This document shows, piece after piece, positions 4,188 to 23,750 of a stretch of 38,266 bases of DNA. The position numbers and the translations under genes were made by a program. The stretch lies in contig PTLL01000015.1 in the NCBI GenBank assembly GCA_002938315.1, positions 1 to 38,266 of the forward strand, in the 5' to 3' direction. A model generated the notes under the pieces. It was not told the DNA's origin, ran no database searches, and saw only the letters and a list, made by a program, of their open reading frames with translations. Position 1 is the stretch's first letter. The number at the start of each line of letters is the position of its first letter. This stretch comes from Alphaproteobacteria bacterium MarineAlpha3_Bin2. Lineage in GTDB: Bacteria > Pseudomonadota > Alphaproteobacteria > Rhodospirillales > Casp-alpha2.

Positions 4188-4202
4188 TACCGGCGTTTTA
4201 GC

Positions 4203-6816: not shown

Positions 6817-6828
6817 ATTGTATGCAAT
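6817..6828. promoter_or_regulatory. Candidate GntR-type operator ATTGTATGCAAT
   Basis: This is a near-perfect 12-bp palindrome in the divergent region between the PrpB-like lyase and the dioxygenase operon. It differs at one base from the perfect palindrome ATTGTATACAAT found at 23671. Similar A/T-flanked TTGTATACAA sites are typical of FadR/VanR-type GntR regulators. Placement between two divergent starts fits control of both operons. Confidence 0.5.
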
Positions 6829-6857
6829 GTAGCGGCGAAAAGCCCTACAATCGAGGC

Positions 6858-6863
6858 TATAAT
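6858..6863 (+). promoter_or_regulatory. Candidate -10 box (TATAAT) for the dioxygenase operon
   Basis: A consensus TATAAT lies 31 bases before the GTG start at 6895 and about 30 bases downstream of the palindrome at 6817. No good -35 hexamer is seen at the right spacing. An activator-dependent promoter with the operator upstream of the polymerase site is possible. Confidence 0.35.
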
Positions 6864-6894
6864 CAACGACAAGCACAGAACAGGGAACGCCCCC

Positions 6895-7938
6895 GTGGGA
6901 GAATTTCTTAAACACCCCGTCACCGGGCCGTCGGCATGGACCAGCGCCGAGCTAGCCGCCGATCAGTCGTGGATTTATCCGTTGTCCGCCGATGATATTG
7001 CGGAGCTGGAAACCGCCGCAGACACGGTCCTCTCCCGGGGCTTACGTCTTTATGAATTCGGGCGGGATGATTTCCCGCTGCCGGGGTTGTCCGCGACCCT
7101 GGCCGATATCGTCGAACAACTGGAAAACGGTCGCGGCTGCGCCCTGATCCGGGGCCTGGATGCGTCCCGCTATGACGAGGAAACCCTAAAGATAATCTAC
7201 TGGGGGCTCGGCTTGCATTGGGGTGAGCCGGTCTCCCAAAACGCCCGCGGCCAATTGATCGGCCATGTCCGCAATCAGGATCGCGATTATTCTTCCAAAA
7301 ACGTCCGCGGCTACACCACCAATGCCCGCATTTCACCCCATTGCGACCCGGTCGATATTGTCGGCCTGTTGTGTGCGCATCCGGCGAAAAAGGGCGGTGA
7401 AAGCCAAATCACCAGCGCCATGTCCATCTATAACCGGCTGCTGACCCAGTATCCGGAATACCTGGAACCCCTGATCGGCGGCTTCCATTTTGACTTGCGC
7501 GGCGAAGGCGTCACCGATGACCCGGACGAAGTGACCTTCAACAAGGTCCCTGTTTTCAGCTATTTCGACGGACGGCTGAGCTGCCGCTTCAACGGCAAGA
7601 CCATCCTCGATGGCCAGGCCAAGGCCGGGGCGCCGCTCCAAGGCCTTGCCCTCGATGCCGTCAATAAGGTCACCGAACTGGCCATGGACCCCGAACTCCG
7701 GCTCGATTTGGCTTTCCAGGAGGGCGATATCCAGATCCTCAACAATTACCTGATCCTGCATGCCCGGGGCGGCTTCGAAGACCACCCGGAACCGGAACGC
7801 CGCCGCAACCTGCTCCGGCTTTGGATCAATCTCCACCACGGCCGCAAGCTGGCGCCGGAATTCGCCAACCGCCTCAACACCGGGCCCAGGGGCGGCGTCA
7901 TGACCCGACCTGATGCGCCTGAAGGAATTAGACCATGA
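6895..7938 (+). CDS. TauD/TfdA-family Fe(II)/2-oxoglutarate-dependent dioxygenase
   Basis: The 347-residue reading starts at GTG, with AGGGAA 7 bases before it. The iron-binding facial triad is visible as H149 and D151 in SPHCDPVDIV and H289 in YLILHARGGFED. The 2-oxoglutarate-binding arginine falls in ERRRNLLRLW (about residues 301-310). The RALIRGL-like segment near residue 82 (GCALIRGLD) is also typical. Such enzymes couple 2-oxoglutarate decarboxylation to hydroxylation of taurine, herbicides, carnitine precursors and other small acids. It leads a three-gene operon in which both following genes overlap by ATGA. A dehydrogenase and a crotonase follow, so it may hydroxylate an acid that is then oxidised. 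Substrate unknown. Confidence 0.88.
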   Translation: MGEFLKHPVTGPSAWTSAELAADQSWIYPLSADDIAELETAADTVLSRGLRLYEFGRDDFPLPGLSATLADIVEQLENGRGCALIRGLDASRYDEETLKIIYWGLGLHWGEPVSQNARGQLIGHVRNQDRDYSSKNVRGYTTNARISPHCDPVDIVGLLCAHPAKKGGESQITSAMSIYNRLLTQYPEYLEPLIGGFHFDLRGEGVTDDPDEVTFNKVPVFSYFDGRLSCRFNGKTILDGQAKAGAPLQGLALDAVNKVTELAMDPELRLDLAFQEGDIQILNNYLILHARGGFEDHPEPERRRNLLRLWINLHHGRKLAPEFANRLNTGPRGGVMTRPDAPEGIRP

Positions 7939-8897
7939 CCACACGCATCGCCATTCTTGATGATTACCAGAATTCGGCGCTGGGCGCCGCCGATTGGGAC
8001 AGCTTAGGCCAAGACGCCGAGGTCACGGTGTTCGATACCTATTTGGAGGGCGAAGCCGCCGTCGCCGACGCCCTTCAAGGGTTCAACGTGGTTATCGGCA
8101 TGCGGGAGCGGACGGCCTTTCCGAAATCCCTGATCGACGCGCTGCCTAATCTCAAACTCCTTATCACCACCGGCATGCGCAATTTTTCCTTAGATATGAA
8201 GGCGGCCCGTGAAAAAGGCATCGTAGTTTGCGGCACCGCCATGTCGGGCTTTCCGACGTCGGAACACGCGGTCGGGCTGTTGATGTCGTTGTTCCGGAAA
8301 ATCCCGCTCGAAAATACCCTCATGCACGACGGCGGCTGGCAGGGCGATGTCCCGGTAGGCATGAAGGGAAAAACTCTAGGGGTATTGGGATTGGGGAATT
8401 TGGGCGGCAAATTTGCCAAGGTCGGCCTGGCGCTCGACATGAACGTCATCGCCTGGAGCGAGAACCTGACCGAGGAACGCTGCGCCGAAGTCGGCGTCGG
8501 CTATGCCGATAAAGAAACCCTATTTAAGGAATCCGACGCCATCTCCATTCATCTGGTCTTGAGTGACCGGACCCGGGGTCTGGTCGGCGCAGCCGAATTT
8601 GCGTTGATGAAACCGACGGCCTATCTGATCAACACGTCGCGCGGGCCCATCGTCGAGGAGGCGGCGTTGATCGAGGCGCTCAAGAATGACGCCATCGCCG
8701 GCGCCGGGATCGATGTCTACGACGTCGAGCCGCTACCCAAAGATCACCCCATCAGGGACCTGAAGAACGCGGTGCTGACCGGGCACACTGGTTACGTGGT
8801 CCAAGAGCTCTATACGGCGGCCTACGGCGATGCGTTGGAAAACATCCAGGCCTGGATGAAGGGCGCGCCGGTGCGGGTGCTGAACGAAGCGCCATGA
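7935..8897 (+). CDS. D-isomer-specific 2-hydroxyacid dehydrogenase (NAD-dependent)
   Basis: This 320-residue cytoplasmic oxidoreductase has the NAD-binding loop GLGNLG at 152-157. The catalytic residues are R235 (NTSRGPIVE), E264 (YDVEPLP) and H283 (TGHTGYV), complete for the D-2-hydroxyacid dehydrogenase family. It interconverts a 2-hydroxy acid and its 2-keto acid using NAD(H). The ATG lies inside the stop region of the dioxygenase (ATGA overlap), so translation is coupled. It probably oxidises the hydroxylated product of that enzyme or reduces a keto acid from the pathway. A second, divergent member of the family is encoded at 36426-37478. Confidence 0.9.
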   Translation: MTTRIAILDDYQNSALGAADWDSLGQDAEVTVFDTYLEGEAAVADALQGFNVVIGMRERTAFPKSLIDALPNLKLLITTGMRNFSLDMKAAREKGIVVCGTAMSGFPTSEHAVGLLMSLFRKIPLENTLMHDGGWQGDVPVGMKGKTLGVLGLGNLGGKFAKVGLALDMNVIAWSENLTEERCAEVGVGYADKETLFKESDAISIHLVLSDRTRGLVGAAEFALMKPTAYLINTSRGPIVEEAALIEALKNDAIAGAGIDVYDVEPLPKDHPIRDLKNAVLTGHTGYVVQELYTAAYGDALENIQAWMKGAPVRVLNEAP

Positions 8898-9685
8898 CCG
8901 ACCCCATCCTGCTATCCATCGAGGGCACCGTCGCCACGGTGGTTCTAAATAATCCGGATAAGTTGAACGCCATCACCCTTGCCGGTTGGGTGGCCTTGGG
9001 CCAAACCATGACGGCGCTGTCGGACAACGCCGATCTCCGCTGTGTCGTCATCCGGGGGGCGGGCGACAAGGCCTTTTCCGCAGGCGCCGATATTGCCGAA
9101 TTCCCCCAAGTCCGCGCCAATGCGGCCCAGGCCCGGGAGTATGGCGCCGGCGTCGCCGATGCCCTGGCGGCCTTGACCAACTGCATACATCCCGTCGTCG
9201 CCGCCATTCAGGGCGCCTGCACCGGCGGCGGCCTGGAAGTTGCTTGCGGCTGCGATCTCCGCATCAGCAATGCATCCGGGCGGTTCGGGTCGCCCATCAA
9301 CAAGCTTGGCCATTCCTTCGCCTATGACGAGTTGAAGACCGTGCTGGCGGTGGCGAGCCGCGCCTTGATTCTGGAACTGATCCTGGAAGGCCGGATCATG
9401 GATGCTCTGGAAGCGCTCAGCCGGGGGCTGGTCAATCGGGTTGTCGCCGACGCCGAATTCGACAATGAAATTCAGGCCACCACCGCGCGCATCGTCTCCG
9501 GCGCGCCGTTGGTCAGCCGGACAACGAAAAAATTTCTTCGCCGTATTGTTGGCCCCGGGGCCGACCCCGCGCCCTTGACCCAGGCGGAAATCGACGAAGG
9601 CTATGCGCTCTGTGACAGTAAGGATTACGCCGAGGGCATGCGCGCTTTCCTGGCCAAGCAAAAACCGACGTTTGAAGGCCGCTAG
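8894..9685 (+). CDS. Enoyl-CoA hydratase/isomerase (crotonase) family protein
   Basis: This is a 263-residue crotonase-fold protein. The CoA-binding and oxyanion-hole segments are AFSAGADIAEF (residues 60-70) and IQGACTGGGLEVA (105-117). The residue equivalent to rat crotonase Glu144 falls in GSPINKLG and is not glutamate, while a glutamate is retained in the later LILELILEG helix near Glu164. Simple syn-hydration is therefore doubtful, and isomerase, hydrolase or C-C lyase chemistry on an acyl-CoA is more likely. It overlaps the dehydrogenase upstream by ATGA. Its stop codon overlaps that of the convergent broken dehydratase gene. Confidence 0.88.
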   Translation: MTDPILLSIEGTVATVVLNNPDKLNAITLAGWVALGQTMTALSDNADLRCVVIRGAGDKAFSAGADIAEFPQVRANAAQAREYGAGVADALAALTNCIHPVVAAIQGACTGGGLEVACGCDLRISNASGRFGSPINKLGHSFAYDELKTVLAVASRALILELILEGRIMDALEALSRGLVNRVVADAEFDNEIQATTARIVSGAPLVSRTTKKFLRRIVGPGADPAPLTQAEIDEGYALCDSKDYAEGMRAFLAKQKPTFEGR

Positions 9686-10847
9686 TCCTTTACCGGCGAC
9701 TGAAAAAGATTATTGAGTTCGGCGCGGGTTTCAAGCCCAATGCCGGGAGCATCGGGCGGTCGAATATGCCCGTCTTCGATGACGGCGTCATCGGAAAATC
9801 CGCCGAAGGGTTGGAAATTGTGGACATTGGCCTCGCTGCCGCCAAGGCCCAACGCCGCAACCACGTGCAGCGCGAACAAGTGCCCCCCATGGGGTTGAAA
9901 CGCGCGCCGGGAAAATCCGTGGCTTTCCCTCACGTCAATGATGCGCAGGTACTCGGACAAGCCATAGCAGTGCACAGGGTCGAACAGAAAAACGTCGTGG
10001 TCCCCTCGGAGCCCCCCGTGCAGCATCAGGTTTCTGGCATCGGCGGCGGAGAATTAGGCTTCGCCGGCGGCGATGGGCGGCGCATAGACATTGGCGACGG
10101 CTGCCAGGGTCTCAAAATCCAGGGGGTCGCAGATGTCTTCGAACCATCTCAGCCCGAAAGGCTGCAATGCAGCCGCCGCTGCCAATCCGGATTCCCGGTC
10201 ATAACGGTACATAGCGTCAACCGCGAGGTGTCCGCCGTTCGGCAAAAGAGCCAGGACCGTCTCGATCCTCTTGAGGTCTTCTTGTAGCGGAGAGAAGCCA
10301 ATCTTGATCTTTATATGGGTAAACCCATGGTCTAGGAGTTGGCGGATTTCCTCTTCAAGCTTGGCAAGCTCGTCGGACGGATAGATATAGCCGCCGCTGG
10401 CGTATACCGGCACCGGGCCCGGTGTGGCGTCCCGTCCCGTCATTTCCCCGATCAACCGGTAAAGCGGTAGCCCGGCGATTTTGGCCGCCGCGTCCCAAAT
10501 CGCCATGTCCAGGGTGCCGACGGCGACACACCGAACCCCGTGTCCGCCCGGTTTTTCGCCCGCCATCTGCAAGCCCAGGCTTTGAAAGGGTCGATCGTGT
10601 CACCGCCTTCGGTGCTCAAATCGTCTCTGCTCCCCGCCAACAGCCGCGGTGAAAAACGGTCCCGGATCAGGCCCGCCTGTCCATAGCGGCCGATCGATGA
10701 AAAACCGAAGCCGACCACCGGGGCGCCGTCCCGCTGGACATCCGTCACCACCGCCACGATGGAAGTGTCGAGCCCGCCGGAGGGAATCGACGGATCGGCG
10801 TATCGGGAAATGGGGACGGTGCGTTCACGGTTTTCTTTGATATGCAT
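9682..10847 (-). pseudogene. Broken mandelate racemase/muconate lactonizing (enolase superfamily) dehydratase
   Basis: Similarity to acid-sugar/tartrate-type dehydratases of about 390 residues runs over the whole span but in two frames. The N-terminal part (MHIKENRERTVPISRYADP and onward) reads from 10847 to about 10580. A one-base shift then moves the match to the frame reading MAGEKPGGHGVRCVAVGTLD. That frame keeps the K-x-K motif (HIKIKIGF), the metal ligands in LAVDAMYRYD and WFEDICDP, and the third acidic ligand in AAGE. It then meets an in-frame TAA at 10054-10052, where the family has GENLFS. After the stop the same frame continues through FSAADARNLMLHGG to GIGLETRAELNNLFQSPVKD. Two independent lesions argue for a true pseudogene, though sequencing error at the frameshift cannot be excluded. 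Confidence 0.85.
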
Positions 10848-10867
10848 GGAAAGGATGGTTTCCGGTG

Positions 10868-10879
10868 TTTGAATACAAT
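10868..10879. promoter_or_regulatory. Candidate operator TTTGAATACAAT
   Basis: This sequence matches the palindrome ATTGTATACAAT (perfect at 23671) in 10 of 12 positions. It lies in the 129-base divergent region between the broken dehydratase and the long catabolic operon beginning at 10977. A very AT-rich stretch (ATATTATAAA, 10881-10890) follows and may contain a -10 element for either direction. Weaker than the other two copies. Confidence 0.35.
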
Positions 10880-10976
10880 GATATTATAAACCCATAACCG
10901 TTCATGGACCCAATCCTCGGCAAAGTATGAACGCCGATGATGGGGCCAGACAAGCATTTCGGGGGGATTAACACCG

Positions 10977-11834
10977 ATGGGTCAGACCGACAAATTGCGC
11001 GCCCTATTGGCCGAAGAGGGGGCCTTGGTGCTGCCCGGCTGTTTCGATGCGCTGACGGCGCGACTGATCGAACGGGCCGGGTATTCGGGCGCCTTCATGG
11101 GCGGGTTTGCGGTATCGGCGTCGCGCCTGGGCGCGCCGGACACCGGGCTGATTTCCTATTCCGAAATGCTGGACCAGGGCCGCAACATCTGTTCCGCCGT
11201 CGATTTCCCCGTCATTGGCGACGGGGACACCGGGTATGGCAACGCCGTCAACGTGCAGCGCACGGTTAAGGGCTATGCCGACGCCGGCTTCGCCTGCGTG
11301 ATGATCGAAGACCAGGTATCACCGAAGAAATGCGGCCACACCCAAGGCAAGCAGATCGTCAGCCGCGACGAGGCGTTTTCCCGTATCCAGGCCGCCGTCG
11401 ATGCCAGAGAAGCCGGTGCGAATATCCTGATTATGGCCCGCACCGACGCCAACGCTACCGACGGCATGGACGAAGCGATACTGCGGGCACGCACCTTTGC
11501 CGACATCGGCGCCGATATCACCTTCCTGGAAGCGCCGAACACTATTGAGGAAATGACGGCATATTGCGATGGCGTGCCGGGGCCGAAAATGGCCAATATG
11601 GTCGAAGGTGGCGAAACCCCGTTTTTGCCGCCCGAACAGTTGGCTGAAATCGGCTACAAGGTCATCATTTACCCGATTTCATTGATGCTGGCCGGGCTCC
11701 AGGTGATGGAAGACGCGCTGGCGTCGATCAAGGGCGGTAGCCATCCGGATAACCTGGCCGGGTTCGGGCATCTCCGCGATGTCGTCGGCTTCCCGGAATA
11801 CTACGACGTTGAAAAGCAATACACGACTGATTGA
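10977..11834 (+). CDS. Isocitrate lyase/PEP mutase superfamily lyase (2nd copy; methylisocitrate/dimethylmalate lyase-like)
   Basis: This is a 285-residue TIM-barrel lyase. It has GDGDTGYGNAVNV (81-93) as Mg2+ loop and KKCGH at 117-121, the motif with the catalytic cysteine. The N-terminal SGG substrate loop of PrpB is replaced by GAFMGGFAVSASRLGAPDTG (39-58), so the substrate differs from that of the copy at 5870-6784. Known relatives include 2-methylisocitrate lyase, 2,3-dimethylmalate lyase and oxaloacetate decarboxylases. Lyases of this type split a 2-hydroxy diacid or triacid to pyruvate (or glyoxylate) plus an acid. It opens the long plus-strand run ending at 22176 and is followed 52 bases later by MmgE/PrpD, the same pairing as in methylcitrate-cycle operons. 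Confidence 0.88.
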   Translation: MGQTDKLRALLAEEGALVLPGCFDALTARLIERAGYSGAFMGGFAVSASRLGAPDTGLISYSEMLDQGRNICSAVDFPVIGDGDTGYGNAVNVQRTVKGYADAGFACVMIEDQVSPKKCGHTQGKQIVSRDEAFSRIQAAVDAREAGANILIMARTDANATDGMDEAILRARTFADIGADITFLEAPNTIEEMTAYCDGVPGPKMANMVEGGETPFLPPEQLAEIGYKVIIYPISLMLAGLQVMEDALASIKGGSHPDNLAGFGHLRDVVGFPEYYDVEKQYTTD

Positions 11835-11886
11835 AGGACGCCCCTGGGGCTTCTATGATGGGGCAACGAACCGGGAGGAACCTATT

Positions 11887-13293
11887 ATGACCGACGTTAC
11901 GCGCCGACTTGCCAAATTCGCTGCCGGTATTTCCCATCAATCAATACCGGCAGACGTGATGCAACGTGCCGCCATGCTGGTGATGGACAACGTCGGCATT
12001 GCGCTTCGCGCCCACCATGATGCCCAATCGACACCGGCGCTGGTCAAAGGCGCGACGGTGTTGGGCCTGGATGGCGGCAAATCTGTTGTTATCGGCGACC
12101 GCCGCGGTTTTACGCCGGCCGGCGCGGCGCTGATTAACGGTGCTCAGGCCCATTCCCTGGATTTCGATGACACCCACGCGCGTTCTTCGCTTCATCCTAG
12201 CGCCCCCATCGTCCCGGCGGCGCTGGCGGCGGCGGAAATGACCGGCGCCGATGGTGAAGAACTGATTCCCGCCATCATCGGGGGCTACGAAACGCAAATT
12301 CGCCTCAGCATGGCGCTGGGGCCATCCGATCACTACGACCGGGGCTTCCATCCGACCGCCACCTGCGGCGTGTTCGGCGCGGCGGCGGCGGCGGGACGGC
12401 TGTTCTGCCTTGATGCCGATCAGATGGCGCTGGCTTTCGGCATCGCCTTGAGCCAATCGGCGGGCTCCATGCAGTTCCTTGTCGATGGCGCCTGGACCAA
12501 GCCGTTTCATGTCGGCCACGCCGCCATGTGCGGGCTGATGGCGGCAACGTTCGCGAAAGAAGGCTACCGCGGCGTCGAAGACGCGTTCGAAGGCCGAGCC
12601 GGATTCTTCCATGCCTACGCGCCCGACCCGGACCCGGCGAAAGCCATCGAGGGCCTGGGCGAGGTCTGGGAAACCATGGCCATCGGCGTCAAACCCTATC
12701 CGTCGTGCCGCTACAGCCACGCGGCCCTGGATGCGCTGATTGAATTGCGCGCCGCCAACGATATAAATCCCGACGACATCGAAGCCGTCGACATCGGCTT
12801 GCCGGAAACCGGCTGGAAAATCATCGGCGACCCGGAAGCCGACAAGCACAATCCCCAAGGCGTCGTCGACGGCCAGTTTTCCATGGCCTTTTGCGCCGCC
12901 GTGGCGTTGCGCGAAGGCGGCCTCGGCTGGGACGATTACGCGCACCATATCGGTAATGCCAAGACACTGGACCTGTGCCGCCGCGTTCGCGCCGCCCCGG
13001 ATCCACAGGCCGAAGCCGAATTCCCCGCCAATCTCTCAGGCGTCGCCAAGGTGACGACGAAAAGCGGCGTATTCGAGGCCTTCGTCGCCATCCCTAAAGG
13101 CGAGCCCGATAATTTTCTAAGCGCCAACGAACTGCGGGCGAAATTCGACACCCTGGTCAGCCCCTATCTGCCCGCCCTCCGGGTCGATGAACTGGCGACG
13201 CGACTGCTGGACATACGTAATGAATCCGACATCAACCAAGTCCTGCGCCTGACCAGACCGGCTCCGGCCGAGGTCGCGGCAGCGGGGGAATAG
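11887..13293 (+). CDS. MmgE/PrpD family protein (2-methylcitrate dehydratase-like), copy 1
   Basis: The start is the ATG at 11887, 8 bases after GGAGG at 11874-11878. An upstream in-frame ATG at 11779 lies inside the previous gene and is rejected. The 468-residue protein has the PrpD all-helical domain (RLAKFAAGISHQSIPADVMQRAA, then INGAQAHSLDFDDTHARSSLHPSAPI near residue 80) and the second alpha/beta domain after VKPYPSCRYSHAALDAL. PrpD dehydrates 2-methylcitrate to methylaconitate, and MmgE/PrpD relatives include cis-aconitate decarboxylase (itaconate synthesis) and iminodisuccinate epimerase. It sits directly after a PrpB-like lyase, favouring dehydratase or isomerase action on a methylated tricarboxylate or dicarboxylate. 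Confidence 0.88.
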   Translation: MTDVTRRLAKFAAGISHQSIPADVMQRAAMLVMDNVGIALRAHHDAQSTPALVKGATVLGLDGGKSVVIGDRRGFTPAGAALINGAQAHSLDFDDTHARSSLHPSAPIVPAALAAAEMTGADGEELIPAIIGGYETQIRLSMALGPSDHYDRGFHPTATCGVFGAAAAAGRLFCLDADQMALAFGIALSQSAGSMQFLVDGAWTKPFHVGHAAMCGLMAATFAKEGYRGVEDAFEGRAGFFHAYAPDPDPAKAIEGLGEVWETMAIGVKPYPSCRYSHAALDALIELRAANDINPDDIEAVDIGLPETGWKIIGDPEADKHNPQGVVDGQFSMAFCAAVALREGGLGWDDYAHHIGNAKTLDLCRRVRAAPDPQAEAEFPANLSGVAKVTTKSGVFEAFVAIPKGEPDNFLSANELRAKFDTLVSPYLPALRVDELATRLLDIRNESDINQVLRLTRPAPAEVAAAGE

Positions 13294-13322
13294 ACTTATT
13301 CATAACAACATAAGGATAGAGC

Positions 13323-13841
13323 ATGGTCGCAGAAGCAAAAGAAGTCGGCAAAAACCGCTACCGGGAAAGCTACGGACGCTATCTGGAGGATTTCAAGATC
13401 GGCGATGTCTACGAACACCGTCCCGGACGCACGATATCGGAATCCGACAACACCTGGTTCACGCTGATCACCATGAACCAGCACCCGCTGCATTTCGACG
13501 CCGCCTATGCGGCCACCAGCGAATGGAAGAAGCCACTGGTCAATTCGGCGCTGACGCTGTCCATCGTCACCGGTATGAGCGTGTCAGACATCAGCCAGAA
13601 GGCGATCGCCAATCTGGGATGGGACAAGATCAAGTTGACCGGGCCGGTGTTCGTCGGCGACACCATCTATGCGGAATCCGAAGTCCTGGAAGTGCGCGAA
13701 AGCAAATCGCGGCCGACCCAGGGCATCGTTACTGTCAAGACCACCGGCAAGACGTCCGAAGGGTTGGTGTTCCTGACTTACGAACGATCGGTGCTGATCC
13801 CGAAACGCGACCACGGCGTCGATGACGCGGCGGATTATTAG
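13323..13841 (+). CDS. MaoC-family acyl-CoA hydratase (mesaconyl/itaconyl-CoA hydratase-like)
   Basis: This is a 172-residue hotdog-fold protein. The hydratase-2 motif appears as SDNTWFTLITMNQHPLHFDA (residues 41-60), with the H/D pair around P55-L56-H57. The spacing matches the single-hotdog MaoC clade that hydrates branched dicarboxylyl-CoA esters such as mesaconyl-CoA, in which a THP/QHPLHFD form is usual. It would add water to an enoyl-CoA to give a 3-hydroxy or 2-hydroxyacyl-CoA suitable for a CitE-type lyase. AAGGA precedes the ATG. Its 3' end is caught up in a 55-bp tandem duplication, and the stop codon at 13839-13841 lies in the first copy. Confidence 0.85.
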   Translation: MVAEAKEVGKNRYRESYGRYLEDFKIGDVYEHRPGRTISESDNTWFTLITMNQHPLHFDAAYAATSEWKKPLVNSALTLSIVTGMSVSDISQKAIANLGWDKIKLTGPVFVGDTIYAESEVLEVRESKSRPTQGIVTVKTTGKTSEGLVFLTYERSVLIPKRDHGVDDAADY

Positions 13842-13915
13842 GCGATGCCGCATCCCGAAACGCGACCACGGCGTCGATGACGCGGCGGATTATTAGGCGA
13901 TGCCGCATCCCGAAA
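13797..13915 (+). repeat. 55-bp tandem duplication across the MaoC/acyl-CoA dehydrogenase junction
   Basis: Bases 13797-13851 are repeated exactly at 13852-13906, and the next nine bases (13907-13915) begin a third copy. The unit covers the last 15 codons of the MaoC gene, its TAG stop and the start codon of the next gene. The ancestral junction was TAG-GCG-ATG with 2-3 bases between genes. The first copy now holds a decoy ATG at 13845 that opens an 11-codon reading ending in TGA at 13880. The true dehydrogenase start is the ATG at 13900. Confidence 0.95.
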
Positions 13916-15063: not shown

Positions 15064-15102
15064 GGCGGGACGTCCGCCTTTAACTGAGGACCGAACACAG
15101 CC

Positions 15103-16359: not shown

Positions 16360-16442
16360 GGACCTGTTTCTGCGCTTTCTTTCTTAGGACAATCCCTTAC
16401 AATTTATTCTCCCGCCGTTGCAATGGAAACTGGAACCAATCC

Positions 16443-17627
16443 ATGACACTTCCTCTCGAAGGTGTCCGCATTCTGACGGTCGAACAGTACGGTGCCGGCC
16501 CCTTCGGCACCATGTGGCTGGCCGACCAAGGCGCCGAGGTCATCAAGGTCGAGCAGCCGGAAGGGGGCGATTATGCTCGCGTTTTAGGTCCCTATTGGTT
16601 CGACAACGGTGAAAGCCAATGGTTCCACGCCTATAATCGCAACAAGAAAAGCCTGACCCTGGACCTGGAAAGCAGCGACGGCCGGGCGGTGCTGATGGAC
16701 CTAGTGGCATCCGCCGACGCCTTGACGTCGAACCTGCGCGGCGATGTGCCGGAAAAGCTGGGGCTGACCTATGAACACCTGAAAGACGCCAATCCCCAAA
16801 TCGTTTGCGCCCATCTGTCCGCCTATGGCCGTGAAGGGACGCGGGCATCATGGCCCGGCTTCGATTACCTGATGCAGGCGGAAACCGGCTATTTCTCGCT
16901 GACCGGTGATCCCGACAATGAGCCGACCCGGTTCGGGCTGTCGGTGGTCGACCAAATGACCGGCGTCGGGCTAGCCTATGCGGCGCTTGCCGGCATTATC
17001 GGGGCCAGGGACTCGGGTGTGGGCGGCGACTTGGATATCAGTTTGTTCGATGTGGCGCTGTCCAATCTGGGCTATCCGGCAATGTGGTACCTGAACAACG
17101 GACACCTACAGCAACGCTTGGCCCGTTCCGCGCATCCGTCGCTGACCCCGTGCCAGATCTATAAGACCGCCGACGGCTGGATCTATTTGATGTGCAACAA
17201 GGAAAAATTCTGGCCGGTGCTGGCCGCGGCCCTGGGGCATCCGGAATGGGCCGACGATCCGCGTTTCAAGACCTTCAAGGAACGTTTCGAGGCGCGTCCG
17301 CTGATCCAAGACATGCTGGATGAGACGCTGTCGGCCAAAACCACCGCAGAATGGCTGATCGATTTTGCCGGCACCGTGCCGGCATCGCCGATCCTGGATG
17401 TCGGTGAGGCCATGGAAAATCCTTTCGTCAAGGACGAGGGCCGCCTGCAGGATATTGAACTGGAGGGCCATGGCACCTATCGTTACCTGCGCCCGCCGGT
17501 GCAAGCCGCGACCCCGGCGCCGGCCAACCCGGCGCCGAAGCTGGGCGAACATACCGACGATGTGCTGGCCGGTCTGGGTTACGATGAGGTCAAATTGGCG
17601 GCACTTAGGAAAGCAAAGGTGATTTGA
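16443..17627 (+). CDS. CaiB/BaiF family (class III) CoA transferase
   Basis: This is a 394-residue transferase. The N-terminus is PLEGVRILTVEQYGAGPFG, followed by ADQGAEVIKVEQPEGGD, both family hallmarks. The catalytic aspartate that forms the acyl-anhydride is probably D170 in LSVVDQMTG. The C-terminal domain includes SLTPCQIYKTADGWIYLM and a P-rich end region ending KLGEHTDDVLAGLGY. Class III transferases move CoA between carboxylic acids, for example succinyl-CoA to itaconate, mesaconate or citramalate, without an acyl-enzyme thioester. Here it is the only evident CoA-activating enzyme of the cluster, so it probably loads the substrate for the dehydrogenase, MaoC and CitE steps. An 83-base gap precedes it. 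Confidence 0.92.
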   Translation: MTLPLEGVRILTVEQYGAGPFGTMWLADQGAEVIKVEQPEGGDYARVLGPYWFDNGESQWFHAYNRNKKSLTLDLESSDGRAVLMDLVASADALTSNLRGDVPEKLGLTYEHLKDANPQIVCAHLSAYGREGTRASWPGFDYLMQAETGYFSLTGDPDNEPTRFGLSVVDQMTGVGLAYAALAGIIGARDSGVGGDLDISLFDVALSNLGYPAMWYLNNGHLQQRLARSAHPSLTPCQIYKTADGWIYLMCNKEKFWPVLAAALGHPEWADDPRFKTFKERFEARPLIQDMLDETLSAKTTAEWLIDFAGTVPASPILDVGEAMENPFVKDEGRLQDIELEGHGTYRYLRPPVQAATPAPANPAPKLGEHTDDVLAGLGYDEVKLAALRKAKVI

Positions 17628-17629
17628 AT

Positions 17630-18916
17630 ATGGGCCAATCTCAACCCCCGTCTCAATCCATGACACTTTCGGAAAAGATTATCGCCAAGGCCGCAGGGCT
17701 GGACTCGGTCAAACCGGGCGACATCGTCACCTGCGCCGTCGATGTGGCGATGATGCACGATTCCTCTGGGCCCAGGCGGGCTGGAAAAATGCTGGATGAG
17801 TTGGGGGTTCCCATTTGGGACAAGGATAAGCTTGTCGTCATCACCGACCATTACACCAATGATGAGGACCCCAACAGCGTCGAAATCCAGAAGATCACTC
17901 ATGCATGGGTGGCCGAGAAGCAGCTGCCCCATTTCCTGCCCGAACAAGGCATTTGTCATGTGGTGTTGCCGGAAAACGGTTTCCTGAAACCGGGCCTGTT
18001 CTGTGTCGGCGGCGACAGCCATTCGACCACCGCTGGCGCTTTCGGCGCTTTTATGGTCGGCATCGGCGCCACCGAACTGGCTAGCGTGCTGGCGACCGGT
18101 GAAATCTGGGTGCGGGTGCCGGAAACGCTGCGCCTGGATGTATCGGGGTGCTTGTCGGAGGGGGTCGCGGCCAAGGACGTCATTTTAAAGCTTTGCGGCG
18201 ATATCGGCATCATGGGCGCCAATTACATGGTCGTGGAATATGGCGGTGAAGCGGTCAAGGCGATGACCATCGATGAGCGCATGACGCTGACCAACATGGC
18301 CGCCGAATTGGGCGGCAAGACCGGCATCATCGCCCCTGACGAAACCACCGCCCAGTGGCTGGCGGCGACGGCGGCGTCGGGGGTCGATATCAAGACCTGG
18401 CAAGGGGACGCCGACGCCCCGGTGGCGAAGACCATTTCCATGGACGGCACAGCAATTTCCCCGCAGGTGGCGGCGCCGTCGAACCCGGAAAACGCCGCCG
18501 ATGTATCCGAACACGCCGGCACCCCTGTCGGCCAAGCCTATATCGGTGCCTGCACCGGGGCCAAGTTGGATGACCTCAGGATGGCGGCGGCCATCGTCAA
18601 CGGCCGGACCAAGGCCACCGGCACGCGTTTTTTCGTAGCCCCAGGGTCAAACCGCATCCGCGATGCGGCCGCCGATGAGGGAACCCTGAAAATTCTGGAG
18701 GACGCGGGCGCGACCATCCTGCCGACCGGCTGCGGCGGCTGCATCGGGCTCGGCCCGGCCCGGCTGGAAGAAAACATGACCGGCATTTCGTCGACCAACC
18801 GCAATTTTGTCGGCCGCGCCGGGGAAAAATCCTCAAAGCTGTATCTTGGCTCCGCCTATTCGGTCGCCGCCGCCGCCATCACCGGGGAAATCACCGATCC
18901 CCGAGAATTTTTATAG
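17630..18916 (+). CDS. 3-isopropylmalate dehydratase large-subunit (LeuC/HacA)-like aconitase-family protein
   Basis: The ATG at 17630 is preferred because AAGGTGA lies about 8 bases upstream; a TTG at 17624 overlapping the previous stop is the alternative. The 428-residue protein holds the [4Fe-4S] cysteines C308 (GACTG), C368 and C371 (GCGGC). It also has the GGDSHSTTAGAFGAF substrate loop (128-142) and the GIGATEL segment. The family hydrates and dehydrates 2-hydroxy acids: isopropylmalate, homocitrate, citramalate/methylmalate or dimethylmalate. The small subunit follows 10 bases later. No LeuA-type synthase is nearby, so leucine biosynthesis is unlikely and a catabolic isomerase is inferred. 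Confidence 0.92.
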   Translation: MGQSQPPSQSMTLSEKIIAKAAGLDSVKPGDIVTCAVDVAMMHDSSGPRRAGKMLDELGVPIWDKDKLVVITDHYTNDEDPNSVEIQKITHAWVAEKQLPHFLPEQGICHVVLPENGFLKPGLFCVGGDSHSTTAGAFGAFMVGIGATELASVLATGEIWVRVPETLRLDVSGCLSEGVAAKDVILKLCGDIGIMGANYMVVEYGGEAVKAMTIDERMTLTNMAAELGGKTGIIAPDETTAQWLAATAASGVDIKTWQGDADAPVAKTISMDGTAISPQVAAPSNPENAADVSEHAGTPVGQAYIGACTGAKLDDLRMAAAIVNGRTKATGTRFFVAPGSNRIRDAAADEGTLKILEDAGATILPTGCGGCIGLGPARLEENMTGISSTNRNFVGRAGEKSSKLYLGSAYSVAAAAITGEITDPREFL

Positions 18917-18926
18917 GGGAGTTCCT

Positions 18927-19430
18927 ATGAGCGATTCCAACGGGACCGGCCGCGCCTGGGTCTACGGCGATAACATCGACACCGATCAACTGGCGCCGAT
19001 TCATTCCTACAAGAACATGGAGGCCGAGGAAGGCTGCAAGTTTTGCCTGGAGCCGCTGGACCCGAATTTCGCAAGCGCCGTCAAGATCGGCGATATCTTC
19101 GTCGCCGGCAACAATATGGGGATCGGGTCTTCCCGGGAACAAGCGCCGCTGCACTTGAAGCTGTTGGGCATCCGCGCCGTGCTGGCCAAGTCCTTCGCCC
19201 GAATTTTTTACCGTAATACCTTGAATTTCGGGGTCCCGGCACTGGTGTGCGCGGAGGTTGACCGGATTAATACCGGGGACGAGCTGCGCGTCGATGCGCT
19301 CAAGGGCCGGATCGAAAACCTGAACACCGGGGAAACCCTAGAATGTGAGCCGTTGCCCGACCACCTGATGGCGATGATCGCCGATGGTGGGCTGATGCCG
19401 CATCTGAAAAACAAACTGCAACGGGAATAA
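18927..19430 (+). CDS. 3-isopropylmalate dehydratase small-subunit (LeuD/HacB)-like protein
   Basis: The 167-residue swivel-domain subunit starts at the ATG at 18927, which has AGGGGAG six bases upstream. Residues near the N-terminus read VYGDNIDTDQLAPIHSYKNM, the LeuD opening in which the D-T-D contributes to the active site. GIGSSREQAPL (near residue 72) is the substrate-phosphate/carboxylate loop in this family. The specificity loop, HSYKNMEAEE in place of the YLRT (IPMI) or YLRT-like (HacB) sequence, is unusual, so the side chain accepted is probably not isopropyl. It forms the active dehydratase with the LeuC-like subunit immediately upstream. Confidence 0.92.
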   Translation: MSDSNGTGRAWVYGDNIDTDQLAPIHSYKNMEAEEGCKFCLEPLDPNFASAVKIGDIFVAGNNMGIGSSREQAPLHLKLLGIRAVLAKSFARIFYRNTLNFGVPALVCAEVDRINTGDELRVDALKGRIENLNTGETLECEPLPDHLMAMIADGGLMPHLKNKLQRE

Positions 19431-19468
19431 AAGCGTGCAAGTGCAAGTTAATTGGCCGGGCCTCTAGC

Positions 19469-21103
19469 ATGTCTTCCCTTAAATCCGTTGCCGCCGCCGA
19501 TCTCAAGGCGATGATCGTGCGCGGGGATGAATTGGCGTTGTTGGACCTGCGCGAAGAAGGCACCTTCGGCGAGGGCCACCTGCTGTTCGCCGTACCCCTG
19601 CCGCTGAGCCGGCTGGAGCTGATCGTTGATGATTTGGTGCCGCGGCGCGACGTGCCCATTGTGTTGTGCGCCGGCGGCCCGGAAGACGGTGATTTGGTGG
19701 CGCGCGGGGCGGAACGGCTGATGGGCTTCGGCTATTCGGACGTTTCCTTCCTGGAAGGCGGGCTGGCAGGCTGGGCCGCGGCCGGGTTCGAGGTCTTTAG
19801 CGGCGTCAACGTGCCCTCCAAGGCGTTCGGTGAATTCATCGAGGTCAATTTCGAGACCCCGCATATTCCGGCGGCCGAATTGCAGGCCATGAAAGACCGG
19901 GGCGAAGATCTGGTCATCGTCGACAGCCGCCCCATGCCCGAATTCGAAAACATGTCCATTCCCGGCGGCATCGATGTGCCCGGCGCCGAACTGGCGCTCC
20001 GCATTCACGATATCGCGCCCGACCCGGATACCACCATTGTCGTCAATTGTGCCGGGCGGACGCGCTCCATCATCGGCGCCCAATCGCTGATCAACGCCGG
20101 GGTGAAAAATCGCGTCGTGGCGCTCGAAAACGGCACCATGGGCTGGCATCTGGCCGGGCTGGAACTGGCCAGGGGACAAACGCAATCGTTTACGCCGGTG
20201 TCCGACGAAGGCCTCAACCGCGCCCTGGAATGCGCCAAGGGCGTCGCCGCCCGGTTCGAGGTCCCTGAAATCGACATCGCCACGCTGGATAAATGGCGGG
20301 AAGACACGACCCGCACCCTTTATGTGCTCGACGTTCGCGGTCGCCGGGAATATGAGGCCGGCCACTTGGCCGACGCCAGGTGGGCGCCGGGCGGCCAGTT
20401 GGTGCAGGCGACGGACCGCACGGTCGGGGTTAAGGGCGCGCGGTTGGTGCTGGTCGATGACAACGGTGTGCGCGCCACCATGACGGCCTCGTGGTTGATC
20501 CAGATGGGATGGAACGACACCTATGTCCTCAACGATGCGCTGGAAAGCGGGCCGTTGGTCAAGGAATCGCACCAACCGCACGTGTTTGGGCTGGAGGCGG
20601 CTACGCCCGAAACGGTGTCGCCGCATGCGCTTTCGGCCCTCATGGTCGGCGGCGGCGCCATCGTCGTCGATTTGACTGACAGCCGCGATCACCGCAACGG
20701 CCACATCCCCGGCAGCCGTTTCGCCATCCGCGCCAACCTGCCCGGAAACCTCGATGCCATCCCCGACGCTATTTCCGGGGGGGCCAAGATCGTGCTGACC
20801 TCGACCGACGGGGTTCTGGCGCGGCTGGCGGCGGTGGACGCGATATTGTCGGGCCGCGACGTTAAGGTTCTCGACGGCGGCACCGGTGCCTGGGCCGATG
20901 CCGGCCTGCCCTTGGCCACGGGGTTCAAGGATGCCTTGGATGACACGGTGGATGTCTGGTACCGGCCCTATGACCTGGACGAAGGAAACGAGGAAGCCAT
21001 GGAAACCTATTTGACCTGGGAGGTGGGGTTGAGCGACCAGATCGAACGGGACGGCACCACCCGGTTCCGCAATTTTGCTGCCCCCCCGACTGCAAATACG
21101 TAA
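19469..21103 (+). CDS. Four-domain rhodanese-like protein
   Basis: This is a 544-residue cytoplasmic protein with four consecutive rhodanese homology domains, at about residues 1-115, 125-240, 265-365 and 375-480. Domain 1 has C67 in VLCAGGPEDGD and domain 2 has C194 in VNCAGRTRS, so these could carry a persulfide. Domain 3 has VDDNGVRAT and domain 4 has TSTDGVLAR at the active-site loops, with no cysteine. A tail of about 65 residues follows. Rhodaneses transfer sulfane sulfur, for example from thiosulfate to cyanide, thiols or proteins. Its location between an aconitase-type dehydratase and its dehydrogenase suggests a role in Fe-S or thiol chemistry linked to that pathway, or release of sulfur from a sulfur-containing substrate. 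Both are guesses. Confidence 0.88.
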   Translation: MSSLKSVAAADLKAMIVRGDELALLDLREEGTFGEGHLLFAVPLPLSRLELIVDDLVPRRDVPIVLCAGGPEDGDLVARGAERLMGFGYSDVSFLEGGLAGWAAAGFEVFSGVNVPSKAFGEFIEVNFETPHIPAAELQAMKDRGEDLVIVDSRPMPEFENMSIPGGIDVPGAELALRIHDIAPDPDTTIVVNCAGRTRSIIGAQSLINAGVKNRVVALENGTMGWHLAGLELARGQTQSFTPVSDEGLNRALECAKGVAARFEVPEIDIATLDKWREDTTRTLYVLDVRGRREYEAGHLADARWAPGGQLVQATDRTVGVKGARLVLVDDNGVRATMTASWLIQMGWNDTYVLNDALESGPLVKESHQPHVFGLEAATPETVSPHALSALMVGGGAIVVDLTDSRDHRNGHIPGSRFAIRANLPGNLDAIPDAISGGAKIVLTSTDGVLARLAAVDAILSGRDVKVLDGGTGAWADAGLPLATGFKDALDDTVDVWYRPYDLDEGNEEAMETYLTWEVGLSDQIERDGTTRFRNFAAPPTANT

Positions 21104-21114
21104 GGAAATCTATC

Positions 21115-22176
21115 GTGAAAATATTGATTCTGCCCGGTGACGGCATCGGCCCCGAAATTATGGCGGCGACGGTTTCGGCGCTGGAGGCGCTGGACGAAAA
21201 GTTCGGTTTGAAGCTGAACCTGGTCGAACGCGCCATCGGCCTGGCGGCGCATGCAGCCGAAGGCTCGACCCTGTCCGACGCGGTGATGGATGAAATCAAG
21301 GCGTCCGACGGGGTGATCCTGGGCCCCGCCGATACCTATGCCTACCCGCCCCCGGAAGACGGTGGCATCAACCCGTCGGCGACCATCCGCAAGCAATTGG
21401 ACCTGTACGCCAACATGCGCCCGTCCCGCGCCCGCGATGGCGTGCCTTGCCTGACGCCGGCCATGGATTTGGTCATCGCCCGGGAAAACACCGAAGGCTT
21501 TTATGCCGACCGCAATATGTTCCAGGGCTCAGGCGAATTCATGCCGACCGAGGACGTGGCGCTGGCGGTGCGTAAGATCACCCGCCAAGGTTCGCGCCGT
21601 ATCGCCGAGGCCGCCTTTCTATTGGCCAAACGCCGCCGCAAGAAAGTGACGGTGGTGACCAAGGCCAATGTCTTGAAAGTGTCCGAAGGGTTGTTCCTGG
21701 GCGAAGTCCGTGACGTCGCCAAGGCCCATCCGGAGGTGGCACTGGACGAAGTGCTCATCGACGCCATGGCGGCGTTGCTGGTGCGCACGCCTGATGCCTT
21801 CGATGTCGTCGTCACCACCAACATGTATGGCGATATCCTGTCCGACGAAGCCGCCGAGCTTTCAGGCGGCTTAGGCCTCGGCCCGTCGGTCAATGCCGGT
21901 GACGTTCACGGCGTCGCCCAGGCCGCCCACGGCTCGGCGCCGGATATCGCCGGCCTTGGCATCGGCAATCCGGTGGCGCTGATGAATTCGGCGGCGATGT
22001 TGCTGGAATGGCTGGGCGACCGGCACGGCAGGGAGGATTTGATCAAGGCTGCCGTCGCCTTCGATGCCGCCGTCGATACGGTCCTCGCCGATGCCGCCAA
22101 CCACACCCCCGACCTCGGCGGCACCGCAAAGACCGCTCAAGTGGGCGACGCGGTGGTGGCGGAGATCCAGAAATAG
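21115..22176 (+). CDS. Isocitrate/isopropylmalate dehydrogenase-family beta-decarboxylating dehydrogenase
   Basis: A GTG start lies 12 bases after the previous stop, with TAAGGAA upstream. The 353-residue protein opens MKILILPGDGIGPEI. Catalytic and metal residues are visible: R92 and R102 (ATIRKQLDLYANMRP), R123 and Y130 (ARENTEGFY), K183 (VTKANV), D216 (LIDAMA), D240 and D244 (NMYGDILSDEAAELSGGLG). The ENTEG motif is closer to isocitrate and homoisocitrate dehydrogenases than to leucine-pathway LeuB. The HGSAPDIAG loop suggests NAD+ preference. It would oxidise and decarboxylate the 2-hydroxy acid made by the LeuCD-like dehydratase, for example a 3-substituted malate to a 2-keto acid. Confidence 0.9.
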   Translation: MKILILPGDGIGPEIMAATVSALEALDEKFGLKLNLVERAIGLAAHAAEGSTLSDAVMDEIKASDGVILGPADTYAYPPPEDGGINPSATIRKQLDLYANMRPSRARDGVPCLTPAMDLVIARENTEGFYADRNMFQGSGEFMPTEDVALAVRKITRQGSRRIAEAAFLLAKRRRKKVTVVTKANVLKVSEGLFLGEVRDVAKAHPEVALDEVLIDAMAALLVRTPDAFDVVVTTNMYGDILSDEAAELSGGLGLGPSVNAGDVHGVAQAAHGSAPDIAGLGIGNPVALMNSAAMLLEWLGDRHGREDLIKAAVAFDAAVDTVLADAANHTPDLGGTAKTAQVGDAVVAEIQK

Positions 22177-22190
22177 TTTTCCACTGTTGT

Positions 22191-23549
22191 TTATTGGGCG
22201 GCGTTGGCCTTGGTCGGCGTCAGTGGCAAGGCGCAAAGGTCGTCGGTTTCATCCAGCCGCCACAGCTGGTCGAGATACGCCGCCGCGCCGTCTTCGCCGA
22301 GTACCGGGTTTGTGATCTCGAGGAATTTGTCCGTCAGTTCGTCGTCGGTTAAGGGATTGTCCGGATCACCCTTGCGGGTCGGTGCATAATGCTCCAGCGT
22401 TTCGCCTTGGGTGGTTTCGATGCTGATTTGGGCGGCGCGGCGCGACGGGAAACCGGCCTCGATGTCGGCATCGACGCTGAGATCGACCTTGGCGATCAAG
22501 TCCCGGAGCTCCCGGTCCTCAAGCAGGTCGGCGGAGAACGCATCCAGGCGGACGCGGCCTTTTTGGATCGCCATGGCGGCGCAATAGGCGAGGGAGAACT
22601 TGGCCTCGAAGATGGTCTGCGGGTCCATGTTACCGCAAATTTCGTGGGCCTTCTGGAAGCTGCCGACGCGGATTTTGGCGATGTCTTCGGGCTTGAGGTC
22701 ATGTTCTGCCCGCAACGCCAACACCCCATCGATGGCGGCGTGGGTATGGCCGCAGGCGGCGTGATTCTTAAACGTCATCCGCTCGATGGTGAACGATGTG
22801 TCCAATGCATCGGCGGCGGCGTTCCAATCCGGGTTGTTGCACATGGCGGCGCCGAAGCCGCGTTCGCCTTCCAGAATATCGATGACCCCGGTGACGCCCT
22901 GTTCCGCCGCCAGCGCCAGGGTGACGCCGGTTTGCGCCGCGTGCGCCGCATGCATGGGCTTGGCCATGGCTTCGCCGCGAAAGGCCTGTTGCAGGCCGGC
23001 GGCCATGGTGCCGGCGTTGGCCATGGCGTGTGCCATGCGGTTGGCGTCCAGGTCTAAGACCGCCGCCGCGCCCGCCGCCGCGCCGAAGGTGCCGATGGTG
23101 GCGGTGGTGTGCCAGTATTCGTAATGGGCCGGGTTGACGGCAACGGCCATGCGGTTGGAGACCTCATACCCGGCGATGACGCTGCGCAAGAAATCCGGAC
23201 CGCCCAAGCCCTTGGCCTGGGCCAGGGCCAACACCGCCGAGATCACCGGTGCGCCGGGGTGGTAGAGGCCGTCACGGTAAATATCGTCGAATTCGATGGT
23301 GTGCGACGCCGCGCCATTAATGAGCGCGGCGGTGCGCGGATCGGTGGTGTGCCCGGACGGATACAACAGGGCCTTGCCGGCACTGTCGGAAAAAGCCTCG
23401 GTCAGCAGCGTCGCCGGCGCCTCAAGCCCGCCCCGCAACGTCGAGGCGAACCAATCGATGACGGCGCGCTTGGCGGCGTGGATGGCGTCTTCCGGCAGAT
23501 CGGTGACCGTCAGCCCGGCGGCGTAATCGGCGAAACGTTGAAGTGCCAT
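22191..23549 (-). CDS. MmgE/PrpD family protein, copy 2
   Basis: The start is the ATG at 23549, preceded by a purine-rich GAGGAAGAGGGAA. A longer reading from 23681 includes unrelated sequence and is rejected. The 452-residue protein has the PrpD opening MALQRFADYAAGLTVTDLPE, INGAASHTIEFDDIYRDGLYHPGAPV near residue 80, and FKNHAACGHTHAAIDGV near residue 275. The motif histidine/aspartate region matches copy 1, but overall divergence is large, so a different substrate (methylcitrate, aconitate or another polycarboxylate) is likely. It is convergent with the dehydrogenase upstream (14-base gap) and followed on the other side by the TcuA-like gene. Its former operon partner survives only as a 3' scrap. 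Confidence 0.88.
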   Translation of the reverse strand: MALQRFADYAAGLTVTDLPEDAIHAAKRAVIDWFASTLRGGLEAPATLLTEAFSDSAGKALLYPSGHTTDPRTAALINGAASHTIEFDDIYRDGLYHPGAPVISAVLALAQAKGLGGPDFLRSVIAGYEVSNRMAVAVNPAHYEYWHTTATIGTFGAAAGAAAVLDLDANRMAHAMANAGTMAAGLQQAFRGEAMAKPMHAAHAAQTGVTLALAAEQGVTGVIDILEGERGFGAAMCNNPDWNAAADALDTSFTIERMTFKNHAACGHTHAAIDGVLALRAEHDLKPEDIAKIRVGSFQKAHEICGNMDPQTIFEAKFSLAYCAAMAIQKGRVRLDAFSADLLEDRELRDLIAKVDLSVDADIEAGFPSRRAAQISIETTQGETLEHYAPTRKGDPDNPLTDDELTDKFLEITNPVLGEDGAAAYLDQLWRLDETDDLCALPLTPTKANAAQ

Positions 23550-23566
23550 TTCCCTCTTCCTCTTCC

Positions 23567-23656
23567 TCAGAATTGTACGTCGTATTGTGTCGGATCGATA
23601 CAGGCTTCGACCAGCAACGGCCGGTTCACGCCGTGGGCGCGGGCGAACACGTCGTT
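23567..23656 (-). pseudogene. 3' remnant of a thiamine-diphosphate-dependent enzyme gene
   Basis: About 29 codons read VFARAHGVNRPLLVEACIDPTQYDVQF and end in TGA, 17 bases before the PrpD start. The P-x-L-x-E-x-x-x-D-P-x-x-Y pattern is the usual C-terminus of acetolactate-synthase or decarboxylase-type ThDP enzymes. Upstream of about 23656 the frame runs into the palindrome and the opposite-strand flavoprotein, with no further match. The spacing to PrpD is typical for an operon, so a larger gene was probably lost by deletion. Short match, so identity is uncertain. Confidence 0.4.
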
Positions 23657-23670
23657 CTGTAACCTGAAAA

Positions 23671-23682
23671 ATTGTATACAAT
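23671..23682. promoter_or_regulatory. Perfect palindrome ATTGTATACAAT, candidate GntR-type operator
   Basis: This is a 12-bp perfect inverted repeat between PrpD copy 2 (minus) and the TcuA-like flavoprotein (plus), about 69 bases before the latter's start. Its core TTGTATACAA is the form bound by many FadR-like GntR repressors. Near copies lie at 6817 and 10868. It is the best of the three sites. Confidence 0.55.
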
Positions 23683-23750
23683 CCGCCAATGCTGGGTCAA
23701 TATTGGGCCCGGAAGATTTGTAACTAGGCTTTTCAAAGGGTGTGGGATCA

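What the first reader, a model, noticed from the sequence alone, without database searches (positions are those of the whole stretch)
6817..23682. A shared palindrome, ATTGTATACAAT-like, at three operon boundaries
A perfect palindrome at 23671-23682, a one-mismatch copy at 6817-6828 and a two-mismatch copy at 10868-10879 all lie in divergent intergenic regions flanking PrpB-, PrpD-, TauD- or TcuA-type genes. The form is typical of FadR/VanR-type GntR operators. Together they could define one regulon covering most of the catabolic genes, although no regulator is present in the window. The seen part is the three sequences and their positions; the regulator type is inferred.
Basis: partly seen in the sequence, partly recalled or inferred. 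Interest (0 to 1): 0.6.

Follow-up and report, generated by a model that had tools for sequence, protein, structure and literature searches.

The report
Operators of a PmiR-like GntR repressor
Two of the three short palindromes flagged in this marine bacterium's DNA are very probably docking sites for a known type of metabolic switch protein, whose gene lies elsewhere in the same genome and which appears to control a scattered set of acid-degrading genes; the third is no better than chance.

Summary
ATTGTATACAAT occurs three times in the 2.27-Mb genome (0.03 expected); five places have at most one mismatch (1.6 expected); 33 have at most two (33.9 expected). So 23671 is far beyond chance, 6817 is rescued by orthology, and 10868 is background in a gap not seen in relatives. 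One exact copy (contig C82) lies 35 bp upstream of a GntR/FCD regulator gene, one of only four GntR genes in the genome; another precedes a PrpD-TcuA-PrpF gene cluster on C57. In ten genomes of the genus, 27 of 29 exact copies sit at the same few gaps: regulator|amidase (9), TcuA|PrpD (7), PrpB|TauD (6), an ECH-PrpB-PrpD operon (1), PrpD_3 (4). The regulator's nearest solved relative is P. aeruginosa PmiR/PrpR, the 2-methylcitrate-cycle repressor, whose published motif ATTGTCGACAAT differs only in the two central bases. Best reading: a PmiR-like, autoregulated repressor occluding promoters of tricarboxylate-type catabolic genes, released by a tricarboxylate. Binding, repression and ligand are inferred; nothing was tested at the bench. 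A new member of a known kind, moderate interest.

The parts
23671..23682 (.). Exact operator ATTGTATACAAT between PrpD_2 and TcuA (TcuA_1)
   Evidence: same gap has an exact copy in 7 of 8 genus genomes with a (nearly) full-length TcuA_1, G008 being the exception; AAATTGTATACAAT is the only long conserved block in the gap
6817..6828 (.). One-mismatch operator ATTGTATGCAAT between PrpB and TauD
   Evidence: exact in 6 of the 8 other genus genomes with this PrpB, one mismatch in G005, absent from that gap in G008
10868..10879 (.). Two-mismatch candidate TTTGAATACAAT upstream of PrpB-like B; not distinguishable from background
   Evidence: matches with up to 2 mismatches 33 vs 33.9 expected; no counterpart seen in the other genus genomes with PrpB_B
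5870..6784 (-). PrpB, methylisocitrate lyase
   Evidence: TIGR02317 393.9 bits, over its cut-off 354.4
6895..7938 (+). TauD/TfdA-family dioxygenase
   Evidence: PF02668
10977..11834 (+). PrpB-like protein B (isocitrate lyase/PEP mutase superfamily)
   Evidence: PF13714; TIGR02317 258.9 bits, below cut-off
22191..23549 (-). PrpD_2, MmgE/PrpD family
   Evidence: PF03972/PF19305; start ATG 23549 chosen by comparison with orthologues; no PrpD equivalog over cut-off
23742..25238 (+). TcuA, FAD-dependent tricarballylate dehydrogenase family (TcuA_1)
   Evidence: NF006130 589.5 bits, over its cut-off 369

Best explanation
ATTGTATACAAT is the operator of a PmiR-like GntR/FCD transcriptional repressor encoded on contig C82 of the same genome (L020 2767-3447, minus strand). 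A dimer binds one palindrome, each recognition helix reading one ATTGTA half; bound at core promoters it blocks RNA polymerase at TcuA|PrpD_2, PrpB|TauD, the PrpD_3-TcuA_2-PrpF cluster on C57, and at its own promoter region shared with a divergent amidase gene. A tri- or dicarboxylate of the pathway (2-methylisocitrate, tricarballylate or aconitate type), probably held at the metal of the FCD domain, would release it. Shown: the sites, their positions and conservation, the regulator gene beside a site, its predicted fold and its conserved DNA-reading residues. Inferred: that this protein binds these sites, that it represses, and the ligand.
For: Genome-wide excess of exact sites. Only four GntR genes in the genome; the one on C82 has an exact site 35 bp upstream; the other three have no such site within the 400 bases upstream of their GntR domain. 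In the genus, 9 of 9 genomes with this orthologue have an exact site upstream of it, and 27 of 29 exact sites in 10 genomes fall at five orthologous places at the regulator or PrpB/PrpD/TcuA genes. Over 22 homologues down to 35% identity (those whose surroundings I fetched and put in alignment A1), 19 have a site with at most 1 mismatch upstream of the gene or of the gene(s) before it, 1 has a 2-mismatch site, 2 have none; in several the gene is next to a TcuA-type gene. In the family, exact sites are in 13 of 14 genomes with an orthologue of 50% identity or more and in 3 of 11 without (Fisher p 0.001). Residues that read DNA in Atu1419 (E34, R45, T46, R49) align with E44, R55, T56, R59, invariant in all 22. 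Nearest solved structure by sequence and by fold is PmiR (E 1.3e-24, Z 22.9, 35% identity; a Brucella GntR protein at Z 22.0 counts as tied in fold); PmiR/PrpR is a repressor with motif ATTGTCGACAAT (PMC9765439). At PrpD_3, four genus genomes have the exact palindrome and four have GTGTATAAT in its place, which suggests overlap with the -10 box.
Against: No binding or expression data. The same exact palindrome stands beside a different, 28-31% identical GntR gene in G018 and G023, so the motif is not private to this regulator. G015 has 12 exact sites, several next to genes without a metabolic link that I could see. Two of 29 genus sites (L087, L094) lie at unrelated or unidentified genes; G008 lacks the site at TcuA_1; 4 of 8 PrpD_3 genes lack it. 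PrpD paralogues match no PrpD equivalog over cut-off, and no 2-methylcitrate synthase passes the cut-off, so the classical PmiR pathway is incomplete here.
Confidence: 0.8

Rival explanations
1. The palindrome is a core promoter element: TACAAT reads as a -10 hexamer on both strands, so ATTGTATACAAT is a back-to-back bidirectional promoter, not an operator.
For: TACAAT on each strand; the EmrAB gap keeps TGTATACAATCC in 9 genus genomes while the second base of the 12-mer is never T; at PrpD_3 the site is replaced by GTGTATAAT in four genomes.
Against: Full symmetry is kept at 29 places in the genus although a one-way promoter such as PrpD_3 needs none; the sites select regulator and Prp/Tcu genes; at PrpB|TauD a separate TA(C/T)AAT-like box lies about 24 bases further on; sites accompany the GntR orthologue.
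Confidence: 0.07
2. A true GntR operator, but shared by several FCD regulators or read by another paralogue, so that the sites do not form one regulon of the C82 protein.
For: In G018 and G023 an exact site stands beside a different GntR gene; a related regulator shares the half-site.
Against: In this genome the other three GntR genes lack the site, and C69 carries its own different palindrome-like sequence; genus-wide pairing with the C82 orthologue.
Confidence: 0.11
3. Chance: AT-rich gaps produce palindromes and the three sites are unrelated.
For: True of the two-mismatch class and so of 10868; 17 perfect palindromes of 12 bp or more in the window.
Against: Exact class 3 vs 0.032; 52 exact sites in 41 genomes vs 3 of the reversed pattern; orthologous placement.
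Confidence: 0.02

Closest known systems
PmiR / GntR-type PrpR (PA0797) of Pseudomonas aeruginosa
   Same: Nearest solved structure (7xp0/7xp1, Z 22.9 and 22.6, 35-36% identity); FCD-type GntR repressor; published motif ATTGTCGACAAT has the same half-site ATTGT/ACAAT and length (passages of PMC9765439); controls PrpB/PrpD/PrpF-family genes.
   Different: Central dinucleotide CG instead of AT; there one prp operon with the regulator and PrpC, here scattered gaps, TcuA and TauD genes, an amidase, and no 2-methylcitrate synthase over cut-off. That 7xp0/PmiR and PA0797/PrpR are the same protein is recalled; that PmiR senses 2-methylisocitrate was seen only as a reference title.
Atu1419 (VanR group) of Agrobacterium fabrum
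   Same: FCD/VanR repressor binding a short palindrome with the GTATAC core (ATGTATACAT), overlapping the -10 box at two targets; same DNA-contact residues (passages of PMC7797058).
   Different: Tetramer with looping between two sites; hydroxycinnamate genes; outer bases differ.
MdcY, repressor of malonate decarboxylase genes
   Same: Listed with PrpR among FadR-subfamily regulators with a 2-nt distance between GT and AC (passages of PMC4494728). I recall its operator as the identical ATTGTATACAAT; this comes from memory, the paper was not held.
   Different: Target genes (malonate) are not those near the sites here; the proteins were not compared by sequence.

Membership tests
GntR family, FCD (FadR) subfamily, VanR group | N-terminal GntR winged helix plus FCD domain (Pfam) | tested here: met
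   PF00392 52.7 bits (cut-off 27), PF07729 101.1 bits (cut-off 24.3)
GntR family, FCD (FadR) subfamily, VanR group | Six rather than seven C-terminal helices | tested here: met
   Predicted model, mean pLDDT 91.0: helices 86-110, 113-128, 133-150, 154-168, 180-196, 200-223
GntR family, FCD (FadR) subfamily, VanR group | Operator of the form TKGT..ACMA, palindromic, A/T-rich | tested here: met
   TTGT-AT-ACAA, 2-nt spacing; consensus from PMC4494728
GntR family, FCD (FadR) subfamily, VanR group | Binding of the operator by the protein | not testable with these tools
   Only positional and evolutionary pairing
PmiR/PrpR (GntR) regulators of the 2-methylcitrate cycle | Nearest solved structure is PmiR | tested here: met
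   (in fold, tied with a Brucella GntR protein, Z 22.0)
PmiR/PrpR (GntR) regulators of the 2-methylcitrate cycle | Motif ATTGTCGACAAT | tested here: not met
   Ten of twelve bases the same, centre differs
PmiR/PrpR (GntR) regulators of the 2-methylcitrate cycle | Regulates an operon with 2-methylcitrate synthase PrpC | tested here: not met
   One citrate synthase in the genome, 330.3 bits against the TIGR01800 cut-off 421.3; PrpB is over cut-off, PrpD and PrpF are not
PmiR/PrpR (GntR) regulators of the 2-methylcitrate cycle | Response to 2-methylisocitrate or 2-methylcitrate | not testable with these tools
   No ligand data
MdcY (malonate) | Linked to malonate decarboxylase genes | not tested
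   No malonate family was searched for; none is named among the genes scanned next to the sites

The most novel reading that the evidence does not exclude
In this uncultured marine genus a PmiR-like repressor has been detached from the 2-methylcitrate cycle (no PrpC) and rewired into a multi-locus regulon for a tricarballylate/methylisocitrate-type degradation route that joins TcuA, PrpB, several PrpD paralogues, PrpF, a TauD dioxygenase and an amidase, possibly with an EmrAB exporter: a so far undescribed catabolic pathway with its own switch.
Probability: 0.35. Interest if true: 0.55.

Novelty: new member of a known kind. Interest (0 to 1): 0.4.

Why it matters
Because the regulated enzymes belong to families that work on tricarboxylates and the nearest studied regulator is reported to sense one, the regulon narrows the search for the substrate of an unassigned pathway.

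Tried and rejected
Chance was rejected for the exact sites and accepted for the two-mismatch class. I first took the exact site of G008 (C26, L078) as the counterpart of 10868; the larger locus shows it in front of ECH-PrpB_B and not in a gap between ECH and PrpB_B, so it does not support 10868. The EmrAB gap (ANTGTATACAAT, second base never T, in own + G001 and G003-G009; exact in G015 upstream of a 57% EmrA homologue) was not counted into the regulon: the asymmetry fits a promoter box or another regulator as well. One-mismatch sites at other genes (ETF/cobalamin adenosyltransferase, CoxG, Rieske and others) were left out; some recur between genomes and were not resolved. In one search some loci had the gene on the minus strand, so the upstream scan there looked at the wrong side for them; the gap alignments and the scans replace it for PrpB_A and PrpD_3; for PrpB_B the relatives' gene order carries the argument. 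Literature: no held paper contains ATTGTATACAAT, TTGTATACAA with GntR, or GntR + FCD + operator + tricarballylate; GntR + tricarballylate gave one paper, unrelated by its listing. Papers: passages read in PMC7797058, PMC4494728, PMC9765439, PMC3223726 and PMC13086498; PMC11982470 was searched for terms and held none of them. The reference EmrA sequence in my BLAST set was in the wrong frame; EmrB and PlsY carried those identifications, and one search repeated EmrA in frame.
Full report
OBSERVATION. The three sites are at 6817-6828 (one mismatch), 10868-10879 (two) and 23671-23682 (perfect), all between divergent ORFs. In the window alone the case is weak: six matches with up to three mismatches against a shuffle mean of 5.6, and 17 perfect palindromes of 12 bp or more of any sequence.

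GENOME-WIDE TEST. The window is the whole of contig C31 of a 2.27-Mb, 123-contig genome, 97% complete. ATTGTATACAAT occurs three times: C31:23671, C57:13660, C82:3483; with one mismatch also C31:6817 and C24:27058; 33 places have up to two mismatches. A Markov model expects 0.032, 1.60 and 33.9; the reversed control pattern gives 18 in the two-mismatch search. So the exact class is strongly enriched (5e-6), the class up to one mismatch mildly (0.02), the class up to two mismatches not at all. The 10868 site belongs to the last.

THE REGULATOR. The genome has four GntR-domain genes. The C82 gene (226 aa, P0001; GntR + FCD) starts 35 bp from the exact C82 site and is divergent to an amidase gene. 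The other three show no such site in the 400 bases upstream of their GntR domain; the C69 gene has its own sequence CTGGTGTACAGTATACCACAG. The C57 site precedes a PrpD-family gene followed by a second TcuA (NF006130, over cut-off) and a PrpF-family gene. In the window, PrpB (TIGR02317) and TcuA (NF006130) are over their cut-offs.

RELATED GENOMES. In 41 genomes (own, nine of the genus, 15 of the family, 16 of the order) there are 52 exact sites in 16 genomes, against 3 for the reversed pattern. All 10 genus genomes have at least one. Of the 29 genus sites, 9 lie at regulator|amidase, 7 at TcuA_1|PrpD_2, 6 at PrpB|TauD, 1 in G008 before ECH-PrpB_B-PrpD_1, 4 at PrpD_3 and 2 elsewhere (L087, L094). 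Per gap: regulator 9 of 9 genomes with the orthologue (best match only 34% in G002, 74% complete); TcuA_1 7 of 8 (nearly) full-length genes (in G008 the best upstream match has four mismatches; G002 and G007 hold only fragments at contig ends); PrpB|TauD 6 exact and 2 with one mismatch of 9 genomes with this PrpB, the ninth being G008; PrpD_3 4 of 8. In the regulator and TcuA_1 gaps the palindrome is the only long invariant non-coding block.

DEEPER CONSERVATION. Farther homologues (38-58% identity) often sit beside TcuA-type genes: G013, G014 and G023 have TcuA_1 followed by the regulator; G011, G030, G040 and an Amylibacter record have TcuA-like neighbours; G031 lies near LeuCD, PrpB-like and TcuA_1 genes. 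Of 22 homologues put in alignment A1, 19 have a site with at most one mismatch upstream of the gene or of the gene(s) before it, 1 has two mismatches, 2 (L129, L229) none; in L106 and L125 the site lies inside the mechanical ORF start of TcuA_1, and the true start was not settled. Left out of the 22: G020's partial gene, cut at a contig end (L130), and the weaker matches. Within the family 13 of 14 genomes with an orthologue of 50% or more have an exact site and 3 of 11 without (p 0.001; the genomes are related, so this p is optimistic). Against specificity: exact sites stand beside a different GntR gene in G018 and G023, and G015 has 12 exact sites, some at genes without Pfam match or clear link.

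MECHANISM. The predicted model (pLDDT 91) has a winged helix and six C-terminal helices. The GntR-type PrpR (PA0797) of P. aeruginosa represses the prp operon and has the predicted motif ATTGTCGACAAT, with binding to its upstream region shown by gel shift (PMC9765439 passages); that it is the same protein as PmiR is recalled. Atu1419 binds ATGTATACAT through E34, R45, T46, R49, and its sites overlap -10 boxes (PMC7797058 passages); the aligned four residues are invariant in the 22 homologues. N140 and H144 are invariant and H188 and H210 nearly so, which fits the metal site of FCD proteins (recalled) and a carboxylate ligand. The operator lies at core promoters: at PrpD_3 it takes the place of GTGTATAAT found in four relatives; at PrpB|TauD it is centred near -35 relative to a conserved TA(C/T)AAT-like box. 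Repression by occlusion is therefore most likely. It is inferred, as is the ligand.

PATHWAY. The genome has PrpB, PrpD, PrpF and TcuA family genes but only one citrate synthase, below the cut-off for the 2-methylcitrate synthase family. So the regulon is not a plain copy of the 2-methylcitrate cycle; degradation of an outside tricarboxylate is my guess.

VERDICT. Two of three sites are operators of a PmiR-like repressor with high probability; the third is not supported. Known kind of system, new regulon composition.

Noticed in passing
L020 about 3517-4866 (+), and the same gene in eight genus relatives: The amidase gene opposite the regulator seems to start with ATT: a G-rich stretch (GGGAG or GGGGG) then ATTTC(C/T) is kept in 9 of 9 genus genomes, and in L020 no ATG/GTG/TTG lies in frame between the upstream stop and that point.
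   Followed up: partly
window 9682-10850 (-): Enolase-superfamily (MR_MLE) gene broken over two frames with an in-frame stop, lying between ECH and PrpB_B, which are neighbours in relatives such as G003.
   Followed up: partly
L022 8059-8070 (G000:C24:27058): A near copy (ANTGTATACAAT) precedes EmrAB in nine genus genomes, always with the second base changed, and an exact copy precedes a 57% EmrA homologue in G015.
   Followed up: partly
L025 (G000:C69), upstream of the GntR gene at 45708: CTGGTGTACAGTATACCACAG, a likely operator of that other GntR protein.
   Followed up: no
window 19469-21103 (+): A protein with four rhodanese-domain stretches sits inside the catabolic operon, followed by an isocitrate/isopropylmalate-dehydrogenase-like gene; in G014 (L105) that pair has an exact palindrome next to it.
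   Followed up: no
G015 (L113-L124): Twelve exact ATTGTATACAAT sites in one 4.0-Mb genome, at varied genes; a larger regulon or several regulators sharing the motif.
   Followed up: partly
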